In this document: piece by piece, positions 5,572-50,221 of the stretch | Layout: every line of letters starts with the position of its first letter | How positions within the stretch are numbered: the first letter of the stretch is position 1 | Virus record (IMG/VR): IMGVR_UViG_3300025127_006147 | Span: 124,001-188,000 of that record | DNA from: a virus | Reading direction: 5' to 3' (one strand) | Length of the DNA: 64,000 nucleotides | The notes under the pieces: model-generated | Database searches by the model: none | Seen by the model: only the letters and a program-made list of their open reading frames with translations | Told to the model about the DNA's origin: nothing | Position numbers and translations under genes: made by a program

Positions 5572-5756
5572 TGGAGAAAAAAAAGTGTAAAGGTTGCAAA
5601 AACAAACCACTAACTGACCTTAGTAAAGAAAAAATAGAAGAAGAGGGTTTCTCCCCCCTTGTCAAAACGTTAATTTTTTTGTATACTGCTTTAGCAGTTT
5701 ATGGAAGTGTGAGTTTAGTCATAGACATAAAAGAATTAATTAAAACCTTATTTTAA
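5571..5756 (+). CDS. Small Cys-motif membrane protein
   Basis: A 61-residue protein: a Lys-rich N-terminus with CKGC (potential metal or redox pair), a linker, then one membrane helix (residues about 30-52) and a short basic tail. It overlaps both neighbours by one base, so it belongs to a dnaJ-DruA-like operon. Function unknown. Confidence 0.7.
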   Translation: MEKKKCKGCKNKPLTDLSKEKIEEEGFSPLVKTLIFLYTALAVYGSVSLVIDIKELIKTLF

Positions 5757-6925
5757 TGAAAGAACAATTAAATTTATTTCCTACCGAAGAAGAAACTTTT
5801 GATTTTGAGTTTATGAAACAAGAGTTAATTAATAACTTGGATATGTTAAAAGAAATGACCGTCCAAGAACAAACTCTATATAAAAAATGGCAAGAAATGA
5901 ATAAAGGTGGTAAGATGTCTAAGATTAAAAAGAAACTTTTAAGTTATAAACAAAACTTATGGAAACCCACCGATATCAATAATTTAGAATTAACAATATC
6001 AGAAATATTAAATATAGACCCTTATGTGGTAATGGCAGAAAGTGGAAAAGGGGTAACAGAATGGGTTAATTATAGAAAATTAATTCACACTATGGAATGG
6101 GTTGCTAATCCAGGGAGAAATATGAAGTTTTGGGTTAAGGACCGTAACACAGATACTGTACTTGGTCAAATATGTTTAGGTTCTGATGTTACTAGTATAA
6201 AAGTAAGAGACGCATATATTGGTTGGGATAAAAAAAATAAGTTTGAACAAGGTAAACTTAATTGTACTGCAATCGCAACTACTATATGTAGTACACAACC
6301 AGGTGGATTTAATATGTTAATGGGTAAATTGGTGGCGTCCCTCACTACCTGTAAGACCATTAGAGAAGCTTGGGAAACAAAGTACGGAAATAAACTAATC
6401 GCGGTAGGGACTACTTCATTATATGGGATAAACTCTATGTATAACGGTATCCCACACTTTAAAACTATGGGAGAAACTACTGGACAAGTTAGATTAAAAC
6501 CAGACGATAGTGTTTATTTGCCCTGGAACCAGTGGTTAAAGGAAACTCATCCAGACGAACACAAAAAAGCTATAAGTGCTACAGGCCCTAAACAAAATGT
6601 AATAAATAAAGTATTTAAACATTGTGGAATTAAACCCTCAGCGTATGACCACGGATTCAAAAGAGGTGTTTACTTGGCGATGATGTATGAAAATGGTAAT
6701 GAGTTTTTAAGAGGAGAAATAGGTGAGAATGAACTTAAATTAAAATTAAAATTTGAAGAAGATATTCCATATACTAAAAGATGGTGGACCAAAAAAGCTA
6801 TCAGAAGATATGAAAGTTTATACAAACAAAATAGATTAAAACCAGAAACTTTATTCTATTGGGACGCGATAGACATATCTTGGGAAGAGATGAAAGAAAA
6901 ATATTTAAAAGAAGTTGGACGTTAA
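5756..6925 (+). CDS. DruA-like (DUF4338) protein
   Basis: A 389-residue protein resembling the DUF4338 family, whose best-known member is DruA of the Druantia anti-phage system. The core (residues about 134-260) has the family order: LGQICLGSDV, then RDAYIGWDKKNK, a TTICSTQPGG stretch, LMGKLVASLTTCKTIREAW, and KLIAVGTTSLYG followed by GETTGQVRL. The C-terminal third (KRWWTKKAIRRYESLYKQNR) is basic and helical. The molecular activity of DruA is not firmly known to me; a nucleic-acid enzyme is likely. It is co-transcribed with dnaJ and not with other Druantia genes, so a stand-alone phage role is more likely than defence. Confidence 0.75.
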   Translation: MKEQLNLFPTEEETFDFEFMKQELINNLDMLKEMTVQEQTLYKKWQEMNKGGKMSKIKKKLLSYKQNLWKPTDINNLELTISEILNIDPYVVMAESGKGVTEWVNYRKLIHTMEWVANPGRNMKFWVKDRNTDTVLGQICLGSDVTSIKVRDAYIGWDKKNKFEQGKLNCTAIATTICSTQPGGFNMLMGKLVASLTTCKTIREAWETKYGNKLIAVGTTSLYGINSMYNGIPHFKTMGETTGQVRLKPDDSVYLPWNQWLKETHPDEHKKAISATGPKQNVINKVFKHCGIKPSAYDHGFKRGVYLAMMYENGNEFLRGEIGENELKLKLKFEEDIPYTKRWWTKKAIRRYESLYKQNRLKPETLFYWDAIDISWEEMKEKYLKEVGR

Positions 6926-43831: not shown

Positions 43832-46800
43832 ATGAGACAAAATTCACCACATATCAAAGAAAATATTGACCCAGAGTTACAATGGGCTATAGATAATCAA
43901 TATCGCACAAATCCTGAATTGAGAGATGAAATTTTAGATTATTTAAGTGATGATGATTTAGATTCATACATTGTTAATGTGGAACATGGGGACGTAAAAT
44001 TTAAATTACCACCAGAAAAAATATTAGAAAAACTGACAGGACTATCCGATTTAGGTAATGTAGTAACTACAATGCGGGGAGGGAATGGTGTAGCTATAAT
44101 AACCGATAAAAATTTAGTAGTTAAGATTACGGGAGATAAAGCAGAATATATAACAGCTAAAGAACTTGAGGGTATTAATAGTAAACACATAGTTAAAGTT
44201 CATGAAAGTAAAGTTATAGACCCAGACGACCAGAGTATTTATACCGAAGATAGTAAACCAGCATATTTAATTATAATGGATAAAGTAGATTCTCCCACAC
44301 CCCAACAAGAAAAGGATTGGTTTGATTGTTGTTGTAGTGAGGATAAACCCATATATGTAGATTTTACTGACCCTAATGGTGATGCTGTAGTACATCCACC
44401 AGTGGATGATTATGATAAATGTAATAAGATTTATGATGATATAATGAATATTAGGAAAGAGGTTGAAAAGACAGGGAGAAGATGGGTAGACATCGGTATA
44501 GATAATGTAGGGATGAAGGATGGTAATTACGTGTTAATTGATTTGGGAACAAATGACCCACTACCACTTACTGAAAGTAAAAAAATTATAAACGAAGGAT
44601 TTTTTGACATCCTTAGTAATCTTTTTAAAAGACCAGAACAAAAAAGTGACACTCCTGACGAGTTAAATCAATACCTACAACAACTACAGGATACTCTGGA
44701 TGAAAATGAAATTTATGATGAACAAGTTTCCAAGTTAGTCGACCAGTTAAAAGATTCAGATTATATAGACCTGGTAGATTTCCCTACCATGTTAAGAGGA
44801 TTAGAAAACAAACTTTTAAAAAGTGGAGAAAATAATGAAATAGTTATAGACTATTTGACTAGGTTAAATAACTCTTTACCTAAAAGAGCTAAATACGAAA
44901 AGAAATTATTACAAGGTCAAGTACCACAAGATAGTGAGTATTACGATGAGGTAGAACAAGAAAAATCTAGGATACCCAAAAAAATATTTAAAACTGAAAA
45001 AGAACTATTACAGATAGAGTTATTAAAACTACAAGAATGGGTTAAGAAAAATAACGTACCCGTTGCGGTAGTATTTGAAGGTAGAGATACTGCGGGTAAA
45101 GGTTCGACAATCAAAAAGTTAACAGAATATTTAGACCCTAAATATTTTAATATTGTCGCATTAGGAATTCCTAGTGAAGACGAAAAAAAGAACTGGTTTA
45201 AGAGATATGAAAAATATATTGAACCAGGAAAGATAACTTTTTTTGATAGGAGTTGGTATAACAGAGGAATAGTAGAACCAGTGATGGGTTATTCTTCAAA
45301 AGAAGAGTACGAACAGTTTATGAAAGAAGTTGTTCCTTTTGAAAAAAGTTTATTAAGTAGAGGTGTAGTATTGATTAAGTTCTGGTTATCAATCACTCAA
45401 GGAAAACAAGAACAAAGATTTACAATTAGACAACAATCTCCACTTAAATATTGGAAGTACTCTCCAAACGATGAAGCTTCCAGAGAAAAATGGGATGAAT
45501 ATACTGACTACAAAGAAAGAGTATTAAAGGATACTTCTCACAGTGGTGCACCTTGGGTGGTTCTAGATTCTAATGATAAAAGAATGTCTGCTTTAAATGC
45601 TATGAGACATGTGTTAGACCAAGTAGATTATGATGGTAAAGATACTGAAACGGTTCGACCAAAATATCCTGAAGCTATTAGTACCATTAGAAGAAGATTA
45701 GACGAACAAAGTGAAGAGGAAGTTAAGTTTACAAAAAGTGCAGAGAGAGTATTAAACACTGCGTGGTCCATGTCGAAAGATTCAAATCATAAGTTTACAG
45801 AGTTTAGGTCAGTCTTAGTTAAATTTTTTAACATACCTCTTACTACCGCTGAAGAGTTAACTTTTTTATGTAAATACAATATAGCAAGGGGTAATGAAAA
45901 AGTAGAAGAATGGGTTATACCCTACATTTATGAATCCACAGTTTACGTTTATGGTGATTATGACACAGAATCTTATTATGATGAGTGTGATGAAGAAGGT
46001 ATGAGTGGAGCTTATGGGCAGGAGTGTGAATGTCTTGAGGGTGAAATTATGGATGAAGACGAGGCGGAATACAGACCTTGTGATGAACAGGAGTTAGAGG
46101 ATATCCACTATGATGATGAGTGTGAGTGTAATAATTGGGAAGACCCAACAATAGAATTATATTATTATCCAATATATAGAAAAACAGTATACAGTACATC
46201 TGACCCAAATGAGTTAGGGTGTGTATACGACAGTCACCATGACCTAGATGATTATGTTAATTGTCTAGAAGTTGACGATGAACTAGTACAAGTAATGAGT
46301 GAAGAGCATGAAGATGATACTGATAGGGTCATTGAAGATGAGTTCGAATGGGATAAAGACCAAACAATAGTGGATTCATGGGAGTATGAGATAGACACGG
46401 ATGAATGGTCAGGGAGTTATATGATAAATAAAATAAATGAAATATATCCTGATAAACCAACTAAACTTAACGAACAACAGATGTCTTTGTTTCCAACTGG
46501 AGAATGGAGACTACCAGTGGGTGAAGAAGATGAATTAGAAAAGTTAGAAAGAATGTTACCCGAATCTATAGTCAAGATAATATTTGAACGATGGGACAAA
46601 GAAGAACCTCTTAGAATGGATGATAGGGATTTTAAGTTGTTTGGCCTACCTAAAGATGAGAGATTATTATTATTTTTAATAGTGAGGTACTTACAAAATA
46701 CCACCAGACCTATTCCTGTTGGTAGAGTGTGGGACTGTGATGATTTAGTTTCCTTATTTAATGATGAAGATAGGAGCACAGCACAAAAGTATTTGTGTGA

Positions 46801-48838
46801 AGAAGACTTTGATTATGAGAGTATGTACGGATATGATGAGTGGTACGATGGGATGTTGGATAACTTAGACGATATGAGTTGGAAATATATTACCACTTTA
46901 CTAGGTGTAGATAAATCTACAGCAGAAAAACTTTTAGATGATAGTTACACAACTGAAGAAGAGGGAGAGATATGGAGAGAAAAAGAAGATGATATTGATA
47001 GGATTAAAGACTTAATGAGGTGGGCCAATGAACGTGCAGCAGCTGCCACTACCTTTTCTGCTATTAGACAAGATATTAAAGATGAAATAGAAGAACATTT
47101 TGAAAATGAAGGAAAATTTGAGTACGACCATAATGGTAGTATTGTATATGAAATTAAAGGAGATTTAAAAGATTACGTACAAGACCCCGACACTTGGGAC
47201 AACATAGAAAGATTTAATAACCATGAAGAGTTTAGAGATAGACACTTACAGGATATTTTATATGATTTTGACTTAAGGTATAAAGGTCGTGACGGATTTC
47301 AACAAAGTCTTTCTGATGTAATATTCAATTTATTCATGGAAAATGATTTTGCAATTTGGTGGGATAGTGAAAAAGATTATTTAGATATTGACGGTAAATT
47401 TACAGACGGTTACTGGTACCCAGACTATGACTTTAATCAAGATTTTAGGGAGTACATGATGGAGGAATATTATGACGAACTAAGAGGAAATATAAATGAA
47501 CAAAAAAATTACGATGCTGAGATAGAACTAACGAGTAATGACGCTTACATTGAAGAAACACCAATTACAAAACAAGAAGCTACTATTCTTAATTTAGTAT
47601 TGGATAGATTTTCTATAGAAGAACTTAATGAATTAGTGTCAAATGATGTAGCAGAAATAGGGAGTGATGTTGAAAATAAGTGGATAAATTTTGTTAAGTT
47701 AATCGGTGAAACGGCAAATACTCCAGAAACATTTACTAAAAGTACCAGATGGGCAAAATGGATGTTGGATAACCTTGATAAAGCAGAGTATGAAAATGAA
47801 GAAGGTGAAATTAATATTGATTTTAATAATGTGGACATTCTAACTAAAAATTACCCATCGGTTTATGAAGTAGAAGGAGATGAACGTATATGGCAACAAG
47901 AATATAGAAAAGCTACAGTACACATACCAGCATTTGATAGTGAAGATGCAAACAATAGAGGTCAAAATAGTTTCTGGGAATATGACCCTGACTTTGAAAC
48001 TTATGATTATGGGGATATGGACCCTGATTATTTTGATGTTGGAGATATCCAACATTACAATGTTTTAAAAGAACAAATCATAGATACTGAAAATTTACCA
48101 GAAGAAGAGATAAGTCCTGACTTAGTTGAAGGTGACAAAGTATTTGTGTGGGATATAACACCTGACCCCGTACCACCAGGTGGAACTTCTAACATTATCC
48201 CTTCTACAGTTATTGGGGTGGTGACAGAAGTAATGCCAGATGATATACAACAGAGAAGAGGTGAGTACCGAGGAGGTATAAAATACATTATAGACACTTC
48301 TTCAGGTTTGATAGGACTATACCAAGGAGTGGAAGATTATAACCATTATGCCGATGATGGTGGAGGTAGAGATAAGTGGGTTAAACTAAACAAACAAAAC
48401 CTACAAGAGATTAAAAAAATCACCGACCTCAAGAACATTGAAAGACAAAAAGATTTTACATTAAAAAAATCTTTTATGGAATCAATAAACAATTTAACCG
48501 AAAAAGATATTACACCAATTAAAGAAAGTGTGGTAGAAAGTAGAGTTATATTATTTAATTACTTAGATGGAATCACAAAAACGAATCTAATAAAAGAAGA
48601 AGAGTTACCTAACCTTTTAATTGGTGGTAGAACCTGGACTGATAGACTTACAGTATCCAATTCAATAGATTTAGATGACATCAAGGAAAACTCTAATAAG
48701 GTAAGAGATATCATATTTAATAATACAAAACTAAAATTAGATAACCCTTCCTTTATTGAAACTAAAAGAGATTTGTTAGAGACAGCTAAACAAACTGTAA
48801 CTCTCTGGAAAGAAACTTCAAATACTATTTCTAAGTAG
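43832..48838 (+). CDS. Giant polyprotein: kinase-like domain + PPK2 polyphosphate kinase + repeats
   Basis: A 1668-residue protein. MRQNSPHIKENID has I-K-E at the N-terminus. Residues about 60-250: degenerate protein-kinase fold (VVKITGDKAEYITAKELEGI; WVDIGIDNVGM as catalytic loop; YVLIDLG for DFG). I-N-E at 253. Residues about 385-615: intact PPK2 with VFEGRDTAGKGSTIKKL (Walker A), ITFFDRSWYNRGIVEPVMGY (Walker B) and IRQQSPLKYWKYSPND. L-D-E-Q at 623, L-N-E-Q at 879, I-N-E-Q at 1221 and L-K-E-Q at 1412 fall between later segments. One segment is acidic and Cys-rich (about 720-770). After 1412 there is a GD module (LVEGDKVFVWDI). PPK2 moves phosphate between polyphosphate and nucleotides. Packaging and cleavage at L/I-x-E are inferred. 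Confidence 0.85.
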   Translation: MRQNSPHIKENIDPELQWAIDNQYRTNPELRDEILDYLSDDDLDSYIVNVEHGDVKFKLPPEKILEKLTGLSDLGNVVTTMRGGNGVAIITDKNLVVKITGDKAEYITAKELEGINSKHIVKVHESKVIDPDDQSIYTEDSKPAYLIIMDKVDSPTPQQEKDWFDCCCSEDKPIYVDFTDPNGDAVVHPPVDDYDKCNKIYDDIMNIRKEVEKTGRRWVDIGIDNVGMKDGNYVLIDLGTNDPLPLTESKKIINEGFFDILSNLFKRPEQKSDTPDELNQYLQQLQDTLDENEIYDEQVSKLVDQLKDSDYIDLVDFPTMLRGLENKLLKSGENNEIVIDYLTRLNNSLPKRAKYEKKLLQGQVPQDSEYYDEVEQEKSRIPKKIFKTEKELLQIELLKLQEWVKKNNVPVAVVFEGRDTAGKGSTIKKLTEYLDPKYFNIVALGIPSEDEKKNWFKRYEKYIEPGKITFFDRSWYNRGIVEPVMGYSSKEEYEQFMKEVVPFEKSLLSRGVVLIKFWLSITQGKQEQRFTIRQQSPLKYWKYSPNDEASREKWDEYTDYKERVLKDTSHSGAPWVVLDSNDKRMSALNAMRHVLDQVDYDGKDTETVRPKYPEAISTIRRRLDEQSEEEVKFTKSAERVLNTAWSMSKDSNHKFTEFRSVLVKFFNIPLTTAEELTFLCKYNIARGNEKVEEWVIPYIYESTVYVYGDYDTESYYDECDEEGMSGAYGQECECLEGEIMDEDEAEYRPCDEQELEDIHYDDECECNNWEDPTIELYYYPIYRKTVYSTSDPNELGCVYDSHHDLDDYVNCLEVDDELVQVMSEEHEDDTDRVIEDEFEWDKDQTIVDSWEYEIDTDEWSGSYMINKINEIYPDKPTKLNEQQMSLFPTGEWRLPVGEEDELEKLERMLPESIVKIIFERWDKEEPLRMDDRDFKLFGLPKDERLLLFLIVRYLQNTTRPIPVGRVWDCDDLVSLFNDEDRSTAQKYLCEEDFDYESMYGYDEWYDGMLDNLDDMSWKYITTLLGVDKSTAEKLLDDSYTTEEEGEIWREKEDDIDRIKDLMRWANERAAAATTFSAIRQDIKDEIEEHFENEGKFEYDHNGSIVYEIKGDLKDYVQDPDTWDNIERFNNHEEFRDRHLQDILYDFDLRYKGRDGFQQSLSDVIFNLFMENDFAIWWDSEKDYLDIDGKFTDGYWYPDYDFNQDFREYMMEEYYDELRGNINEQKNYDAEIELTSNDAYIEETPITKQEATILNLVLDRFSIEELNELVSNDVAEIGSDVENKWINFVKLIGETANTPETFTKSTRWAKWMLDNLDKAEYENEEGEINIDFNNVDILTKNYPSVYEVEGDERIWQQEYRKATVHIPAFDSEDANNRGQNSFWEYDPDFETYDYGDMDPDYFDVGDIQHYNVLKEQIIDTENLPEEEISPDLVEGDKVFVWDITPDPVPPGGTSNIIPSTVIGVVTEVMPDDIQQRRGEYRGGIKYIIDTSSGLIGLYQGVEDYNHYADDGGGRDKWVKLNKQNLQEIKKITDLKNIERQKDFTLKKSFMESINNLTEKDITPIKESVVESRVILFNYLDGITKTNLIKEEELPNLLIGGRTWTDRLTVSNSIDLDDIKENSNKVRDIIFNNTKLKLDNPSFIETKRDLLETAKQTVTLWKETSNTISK

Positions 48839-49743: not shown

Positions 49744-49774
49744 TTGACGGTTTATAAAATTATACCTATATTTG
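49744..49774 (+). promoter_or_regulatory. Bacteroidota-type promoter of RNA candidate 2
   Basis: TTG (49744-49746), 20 bases, TATATTTG (49767-49774). Transcription would start near 49781. No protein gene follows, only structured RNA up to the terminator at 50148. Confidence 0.85.
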
Positions 49775-49914
49775 TTATGTCAAATGACAAACCGATTGAT
49801 AAAAGTGAAAGAAGGTTTTAACTAACGTATTAAGGCACAACAATCTATACAAGGAAGGAGTTACGCAATGATATCTGGAACTACGTAACTTTAAAAAAGA
49901 ACCTTCCTTTATAA

Positions 49915-49986
49915 GCGGGTGTAGTTTAACGGTAAAACACCTAACATCCAGTTAGGAATTGGGAGTTCAAATCTTACCCATCCGCT
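49915..49986 (+). tRNA. tRNA-Gly(UCC)-like element, probably degenerate or mimic
   Basis: Cloverleaf: acceptor GCGGGTG with CATCCGC (one G-U), D stem GTTT/AAAC with GG in the loop, anticodon stem CCTAA/TTAGG, loop CATCCAG (anticodon TCC at 49947-49949). The T arm has TTCAAAT but needs one bulge and one mismatch. Position 33 is A instead of the near-universal U. CCA is not encoded. It lies inside RNA candidate 2, between two helical domains. Either a divergent tRNA-Gly that is cut out, or a tRNA-like domain of the larger RNA. Confidence 0.6.
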
Positions 49987-50147
49987 CTAAATTAAGAGGT
50001 TGCAGTAAACTATAAGGGATACGCAATACAAACTATCGGGTGTCACGGTGGGTATCGAAAAAAATACCTAAATAGCGTATGAGAGACACCGTCGAACTTC
50101 TTAATTTCCCGAAAGGGTGGTGGAACCCGAATCCAATTCGGCCCCAA

Positions 50148-50177
50148 AGCCAGAGTTTAATTACTCTGGCTTTTTTT
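50148..50177 (+). terminator. Rho-independent terminator of RNA candidate 2
   Basis: AGCCAGAGT pairs with ACTCTGGCT (9 bp, 6-base loop), followed by a T7 tract. Confidence 0.95.
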
Positions 50178-50221
50178 ATTGACAATAGTATAAAATTCAT
50201 ATAAGTTTAAAAAAAAAGATT

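What the first reader, a model, noticed from the sequence alone, without database searches (positions are those of the whole stretch)
49781..50177. Previously unrecognised structured RNA with its own promoter, pseudoknot and terminator
About 400 bases without a plausible gene lie between a TTG-N20-TATATTTG promoter and a 9-bp terminator. A 13-bp helix (49989-50001/50095-50107) encloses a pseudoknot of two perfect 6-bp helices, with GAAA-capped and other hairpins outside. A tRNA-Gly-like cloverleaf sits in the middle. It matches no RNA family I can name.
Basis: seen in the sequence. Interest (0 to 1): 0.82.

Follow-up and report, generated by a model that had tools for sequence, protein, structure and literature searches.

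The report
Odd glycine-tRNA-like phage RNA locus
A virus of bacteria carries a small self-contained RNA gene whose heart is a glycine tRNA look-alike; relatives in about 30 other phage contigs keep its cloverleaf and its glycine marks but have lost most of the features that ordinary protein-making tRNAs need, so it is probably a tRNA mimic with another job.

Summary
In detail: promoter box, 13-bp helix, two interleaved 6-bp helices, GAAA hairpin, tRNA-Gly cloverleaf and terminator are at the stated places. The reading changes. (1) The conserved core is the cloverleaf (49915-49986), which matches Rfam's tRNA family (43.5 bits). (2) The helix/pseudoknot module (49988-50107) is the least conserved part: the closest covering relative lacks this 111-nt block, others carry an unrelated ~357-nt insert, and no homologue was found. 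(3) I found 26 distinct homologous cloverleaves in about 30 phage contigs, none in bacterial genomes. Their helices covary strongly and all keep the bacterial glycine identity set, but 24/26 have A33 instead of U33, 16/26 have 8-nt anticodon loops and 22/26 lack GG in the D-loop; 80 of 81 other tRNAs in these and related phages have U33. In 12 contigs of one clade the cloverleaf lies 150-670 nt upstream of a TROVE/Ro60-like gene; in the window that gene is 15.6 kb away. Best explanation: a tRNA-Gly-derived mimic, processed from a short transcript, possibly a partner of the phage TROVE system. An eccentric but working tRNA-Gly is the main rival.

The parts
49744..49774 (+). Bacteroidota-type promoter: TTG-N20-TATATTTG
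   Evidence: Sequence; TATATTTG kept upstream of homologues in G003, G010, G012, G013. The promoter type is from general knowledge.
49851..49909 (+). Leader hairpin: P1 AAGGAAGG/CCTTCCTT, P2 AGTTACG/CGTAACT, A-rich 3' strand
   Evidence: Kept in G003 and G007-G010; 100% paired; two pairs with compensatory changes in four sequences
49915..49986 (+). tRNA-Gly-like cloverleaf, loop CAUCCAG (A33), bulged A in the T-stem, U73
   Evidence: Rfam RF00005 43.5 bits, ARAGORN, 26-member alignment A4 with strong covariation
49988..50107 (+). Lineage-specific insert: 13-bp helix closing an interleaved pair of 6-bp helices
   Evidence: Exact helices; absent in G003, replaced in G007-G010
50108..50124 (+). 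CCC-GAAA-GGG hairpin followed by TGGTGGA
   Evidence: CCCGAAAGGGTGGTGGA is identical in distant G014; hairpin kept in G003 and G010 with other loops
50127..50141 (+). Hairpin CCGAAT/ATTCGG
   Evidence: C-G becomes U-G (G003) and U-A (G010): pairing kept through change
50146..50178 (+). Intrinsic terminator AAAGCCAGAGT/ACTCTGGCTTT plus T-run
   Evidence: kept in G003 and G007-G010
32894..34330 (+). TROVE/Ro60-like protein gene (phrog_850, DUF2828/DUF7788): candidate partner, 15.6 kb away
   Evidence: Foldseek best hit is TROVE structure 9kop, E=1.1e-10
34702..35436 (+). CCA-adding tRNA nucleotidyltransferase-like gene, possible 3'-end maturase
   Evidence: phrog_24229 E=2.5e-57, PF01743 E=3.6e-15

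Best explanation
The locus is a short, self-contained RNA transcription unit of a large phage. Its functional core is a tRNA-Gly-derived cloverleaf made from a primary transcript whose leader hairpin, trailer hairpins and terminator flank it; in this phage lineage the trailer has also acquired a 111-nt helix/pseudoknot insert. Shown: the cloverleaf is conserved and covaries across phages, keeps the glycine identity set, and has systematically lost U33, the 7-nt anticodon loop and/or the D-loop GG. Inferred: host RNases trim it, CCA is added (the phage encodes such an enzyme), it may be glycylated, and it acts as a tRNA mimic rather than as an ordinary decoding tRNA. The most likely partner is the phage's own TROVE/Ro60-like protein, in the manner of the tRNA-mimicking bacterial Y RNAs; acting as a decoy for tRNA-binding or tRNA-cutting host proteins is the next most likely role.
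For: 26 distinct homologues from about 30 contigs; covariation score 0.301 against 0.144 for shuffles (0/500), 97.6% of cells paired against 38-48% when slid. A33 in 24/26, 8-nt loop in 16/26, D-loop GG in 4/26, against U33 in 80/81 and GG in 79/82 of other tRNAs from these and related phages. Rfam scores are 27-48 bits against mostly 55-76 for other tRNAs in the same genomes. U73, G1-C72, C2-G71, G3-C70 and CC in the loop are in all 26, which is the bacterial glycine set (PMC9976931). G059 and G065 keep a tandem pair of cloverleaves about 30 kb away from their tRNA cluster; G069 also has a separate tRNA-Gly(UCC) with an ordinary U33 loop. In 12 contigs the TROVE gene starts 154-663 nt downstream on the same strand. 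The TROVE fold is supported. Tentative: the leader hairpin shares AGGAAGG/CCTTCCT, and its 55-nt GGAAGG-to-CCTTCC length, with a hairpin in the RNA next to the window's TROVE gene; 0.005 such hairpins are expected per shuffled window.
Against: Deviant tRNAs such as tRNA-Pyl (6-bp anticodon stem, 4-5-nt D-loop, no GG or TPsiC) do translate (PMC7609411). The 12 adjacent contigs are one clade and their locus also holds an ordinary tRNA-Arg; in the window, G003, G007, G012, G014, G059 and G065 the TROVE gene is 11-200 kb away. Covariance models of the TROVE-adjacent hairpins do not find the window's leader convincingly (R2 none; R3 8.8 bits, E=3.7, with the antisense strand scoring higher; best relative 17.3 bits, E=0.017). 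A candidate RNA already lies next to the TROVE gene in the window. No expression or binding data exist.
Confidence: 0.45

Rival explanations
1. An eccentric but working phage tRNA-Gly(UCC) that supplies GGA decoding, perhaps altered in its anticodon loop to escape host anticodon nucleases; the flanking hairpins are ordinary leader and trailer.
For: Cloverleaf and full glycine identity set are kept; GGA is 169 of 531 glycine codons in the genes counted; it is the only RF00005 match in G000 and in G003; tRNA-Pyl shows that such loops can translate; phage tRNAs with loop mutations that evade nucleases have been proposed (PMC10264068).
Against: A33 in 24/26 and 8-nt loops in 16/26 against U33 in 80/81 other tRNAs; G069 has another tRNA-Gly(UCC) with a U33 loop; location away from the tRNA cluster in G059 and G065.
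Confidence: 0.33
2. One integrated ~400-nt structured RNA in which the pseudoknot and the cloverleaf work together.
For: Low folding energy (z -3.6), exact helices, shared promoter and terminator.
Against: The pseudoknot block is missing in the nearest covering relative and replaced by an unrelated insert in others; more distant homologues have only the cloverleaf, without leader hairpin or trailer.
Confidence: 0.1
3. A cis-acting tRNA-like element in an untranslated region, controlling the next gene.
For: In many class-2 contigs a start codon lies 15-24 nt after the cloverleaf.
Against: In the window, G003 and G007-G010 a strong terminator separates it from the next gene; the downstream gene differs between clades, and the two small basic proteins are not detectably related.
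Confidence: 0.08

Closest known systems
Phage-encoded tRNA-Gly(UCC) (Rfam RF00005)
   Same: Cloverleaf, acceptor stem GCGGGUG/CAUCCGC, discriminator U73, CC in the loop; clear descent from tRNA-Gly
   Different: A33, 7- or 8-nt loop closed by C32-G38, T-stem bulge or 6-8-nt T-loops, mostly no GG in the D-loop
Bacterial Y RNA YrlA with Ro60/Rsr
   Same: tRNA mimicry; a Ro60-fold (TROVE) protein gene in the same phage and adjacent in 12 related contigs
   Different: No match to the recalled Ro-binding motif GNCGAAN0-1G in the unit; a full acceptor stem instead of a long Ro-binding stem; not adjacent in the window
tRNA-Pyl and other non-canonical but active tRNAs
   Same: 6-bp anticodon stem, very short D-loop, loss of GG/TPsiC
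   Different: Glycine identity elements, altered anticodon loop, no dedicated synthetase seen
Stable RNAs encoded near phage tRNAs (T4 RNA C/D, GOLLD, ROOL)
   Same: Structured RNA encoded beside a phage tRNA-like gene (T4 example from memory)
   Different: No Rfam match outside the cloverleaf; here the tRNA-like part is the conserved part

Membership tests
Functional elongator tRNA (Gly) | Cloverleaf with covarying helices | tested here: met
Functional elongator tRNA (Gly) | U33 and a 7-nt anticodon loop | tested here: not met
   A33 in 24/26, 8-nt loop in 16/26; the window has A33 with 7 nt; controls 80/81 U33
Functional elongator tRNA (Gly) | G18G19 and an unbroken 5-bp T-stem | tested here: inconclusive
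   The window has GG but a bulged A in the T-stem; 22/26 lack GG
Functional elongator tRNA (Gly) | Bacterial glycine identity set U73, G1-C72, C2-G71, G3-C70, C35, C36 | tested here: met
   26/26 in A4, set taken from PMC9976931; numbering of CC is uncertain in 8-nt loops
Functional elongator tRNA (Gly) | Aminoacylation and decoding | not testable with these tools
   needs biochemistry
Bacterial Y RNA (YrlA) | Ro60/TROVE protein encoded with it | tested here: inconclusive
   Adjacent in 12 contigs of one clade, 15.6 kb away in the window
Bacterial Y RNA (YrlA) | Ro-binding motif GNCGAAN0-1G (recalled from memory; the source paper is not held) | tested here: not met
   No occurrence within 49781-50177; GTCGAAC at 50091-50097 is followed by T
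Bacterial Y RNA (YrlA) | Binding to the TROVE protein | not testable with these tools
   needs biochemistry
tmRNA | Split tRNA domain with tag reading frame | tested here: not met
   ARAGORN finds a continuous tRNA only
GOLLD / ROOL / other Rfam 15 families | Covariance-model match | tested here: not met
   Only RF00005 reaches its gathering score

The most novel reading that the evidence does not exclude
A phage-specific family of glycine-tRNA mimics that has left translation and serves as the tRNA-like partner of a phage Ro60/TROVE ribonucleoprotein: a virus-encoded Ro60-Y-RNA analogue that evolved from tRNA-Gly independently of YrlA.
Probability: 0.25. Interest if true: 0.85.

Novelty: new variant of a known kind. 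Interest (0 to 1): 0.6.

Why it matters
TROVE/Ro60-like proteins are common in phages (682 of 50,697 records), but I found no phage study that tests their RNA partner. A conserved, phage-only tRNA-Gly mimic that lies beside the TROVE gene in one clade gives a concrete candidate. It also shows phage 'tRNA genes' drifting away from canonical decoding features while keeping synthetase identity, which bears on host defences that cut tRNAs.

Tried and rejected
Direct Y-RNA reading of the 49988-50107 insert from its GTCGAAC: the full recalled motif is not met. Homologues of the insert: none by pattern (the one hit is a GC-rich chance match) or by BLAST over held loci. The pattern CCGCT..CCC..GGGTGGTGGA gave chance hits apart from G014. 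blastn of the region against annotated phages: none. Pairing of GGTGGTGGA with the anticodon loop: possible on paper, no covariation. Homology of the leader hairpin and the TROVE-adjacent hairpin by covariance model: weak. TTGCAGTAA at the top of the 13-bp stem as a variant of the TROVE-RNA motif: that pattern occurs 14 times on the window's plus strand, so no weight is put on it. Homology of the downstream small basic proteins in the two classes: not detected.

Full report
The window is 124001-188000 of a 194-kb IMG/VR virus record. Nearby genes encode a PPK2 polyphosphate kinase domain within a 1668-aa protein, an M23/SLT lysin-like protein, a TROVE-type protein and a CCA-adding enzyme.

Observation. 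The interleaved pair occurred in 16 of 2000 shuffles and a helix of at least 11 bp in 48 of 2000. Folding energy is lower than shuffles for the whole and for the 3' half, but not clearly for the 5' part.

What is conserved. Relatives were reached through the TROVE protein and searched with the region's DNA. G003 (190.9 kb) matches 49767-49990 at 94% and then jumps straight to 50102-50187 at 90%: it lacks the helix/pseudoknot block. G007-G010 match the 3' part of the leader, the cloverleaf and the tail, with an unrelated ~357-nt insert in between. G014 (245.9 kb) has the cloverleaf followed directly by the identical CCCGAAAGGGTGGTGGA and a covarying hairpin. So the conserved backbone is promoter, leader hairpin (in close relatives), cloverleaf, trailer hairpins and terminator. 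The pseudoknot block is a lineage-specific insert with no homologue found. It may still be functional, but comparative evidence cannot speak for it.

The cloverleaf family. Model R1 and a degenerate pattern found 26 distinct cloverleaves in about 30 viral contigs. The same pattern in one genome for each of 84,980 prokaryote species gave one ordinary tRNA-Gly and one chance match. On a MAFFT alignment that was not fitted to any structure, 97.6% of cells pair, against 38-48% for slid versions; the covariation score is 0.301 against 0.144 for shuffles, and 8 pairs have changes on both sides. The D, anticodon, T and acceptor stems all vary with compensation. All 26 keep G1-C72, C2-G71, G3-C70, U73 and CC in the loop, the bacterial glycine identity set (PMC9976931). 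Yet 24/26 have A at position 33, 16/26 have an 8-nt anticodon loop (CAUUCCAG), 22/26 lack GG in the D-loop, D-loops run from 5 to 9 nt, and class-1 members, the window's included, have a bulged A in the T-stem. Of 81 other tRNAs with a 3-nt anticodon call in these and related phages, 80 have U33, and 79 of 82 have GG in the D-loop (ARAGORN's own filters may favour canonical ones, though it does call the A33 tRNA of the window). The deviation therefore looks systematic and not a general looseness of these phages' tRNAs.

Context. In 12 contigs of one clade the TROVE gene starts 154-663 nt downstream of the cloverleaf on the same strand; four further contigs end before that point could be seen. 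In the window and in G003, G007, G012, G014, G059 and G065 the two are 11-200 kb apart. The protein is a TROVE/Ro60 relative by fold (Foldseek 9kop, E=1.1e-10), with DUF2828/DUF7788 matches and an invariant DVSGSM motif, and is common in phages. Bacterial Y RNAs mimic tRNAs and are encoded with Ro60, and Y RNAs have been proposed for mycobacteriophages and for a Listeria phage (PMC12282133; PMC7790460); TROVE proteins in jumbo phages are noted in PMC7824862. The ordinary tRNA cluster and the cloverleaf pair are separate in G059 and G065, and G069 has another tRNA-Gly(UCC) with a U33 loop.

A second RNA. Directly downstream of the TROVE gene lies a separate conserved structured RNA (window 34331-34655), with a motif T[AGT]CAGCAA enriched 37-fold in the 450 nt downstream of TROVE in 53 of 72 loci (many of these are close relatives), and hairpins whose P1 covaries. 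The window's leader hairpin has the same 6-bp P1 and the same 55-nt length as one of its hairpins, and these are the only two such hairpins in the window (0.005 expected for the 7-bp form). Covariance models do not confirm the homology, so this link is a lead only.

Reading. I commit to a tRNA-Gly-derived mimic, released from a short transcript and most likely acting outside ordinary decoding, with the TROVE system as the preferred partner (0.45). The strongest rival is an eccentric but working tRNA-Gly (0.33), because tRNA-Pyl shows that similar loops can be translated (PMC7609411) and phage tRNAs with altered anticodon loops have been proposed to evade host nucleases (PMC10264068). Shown here: anatomy, conservation, covariation, identity elements, deviations and gene context. 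Inferred: transcription, processing, charging, binding and role.

Noticed in passing
window 34331-34655 (+); also L003, L005-L007, L010, L015-L022: Conserved structured RNA directly downstream of the TROVE/Ro60-like gene, with no Rfam match: outer helix TGGGTAG/CTACCCA (TGAGTAG/CTACTCA in L010) and a GGAAGG/CCTTCC hairpin with TACAGCAA. A better Y-RNA candidate than the finding itself.
   Followed up: partly
450 nt downstream of TROVE genes in L003-L081: Motif T[AGT]CAGCAA in 53 of 72 loci on the sense strand, 2.5 per kb against 0.07 elsewhere, at the top of ~55-nt hairpins with covarying 6-7-bp stems (GGTTCC/GGAACC, GGCTTC/GAAGCC, GGGTTAT/ATAACCC): apparently an undescribed TROVE-associated RNA family in phages.
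   Followed up: partly
L278 7321-7502 and L285 5812-5989: Tandem pairs of the tRNA-Gly-like cloverleaf, about 30 kb from the phages' ordinary tRNA clusters.
   Followed up: partly
L103-L106 (G007-G010), between cloverleaf and trailer: A ~357-nt non-coding insert at the place of the window's pseudoknot block, itself with fairly low folding energy (z -2.3) and unrelated in sequence.
   Followed up: no
window 43832-48838: PPK2 polyphosphate kinase domain (residues 384-604) embedded in a 1668-aa phage protein.
   Followed up: no
window 5756-6925: DruA (Druantia defence protein) match, E=3e-25, in the phage genome.
   Followed up: no
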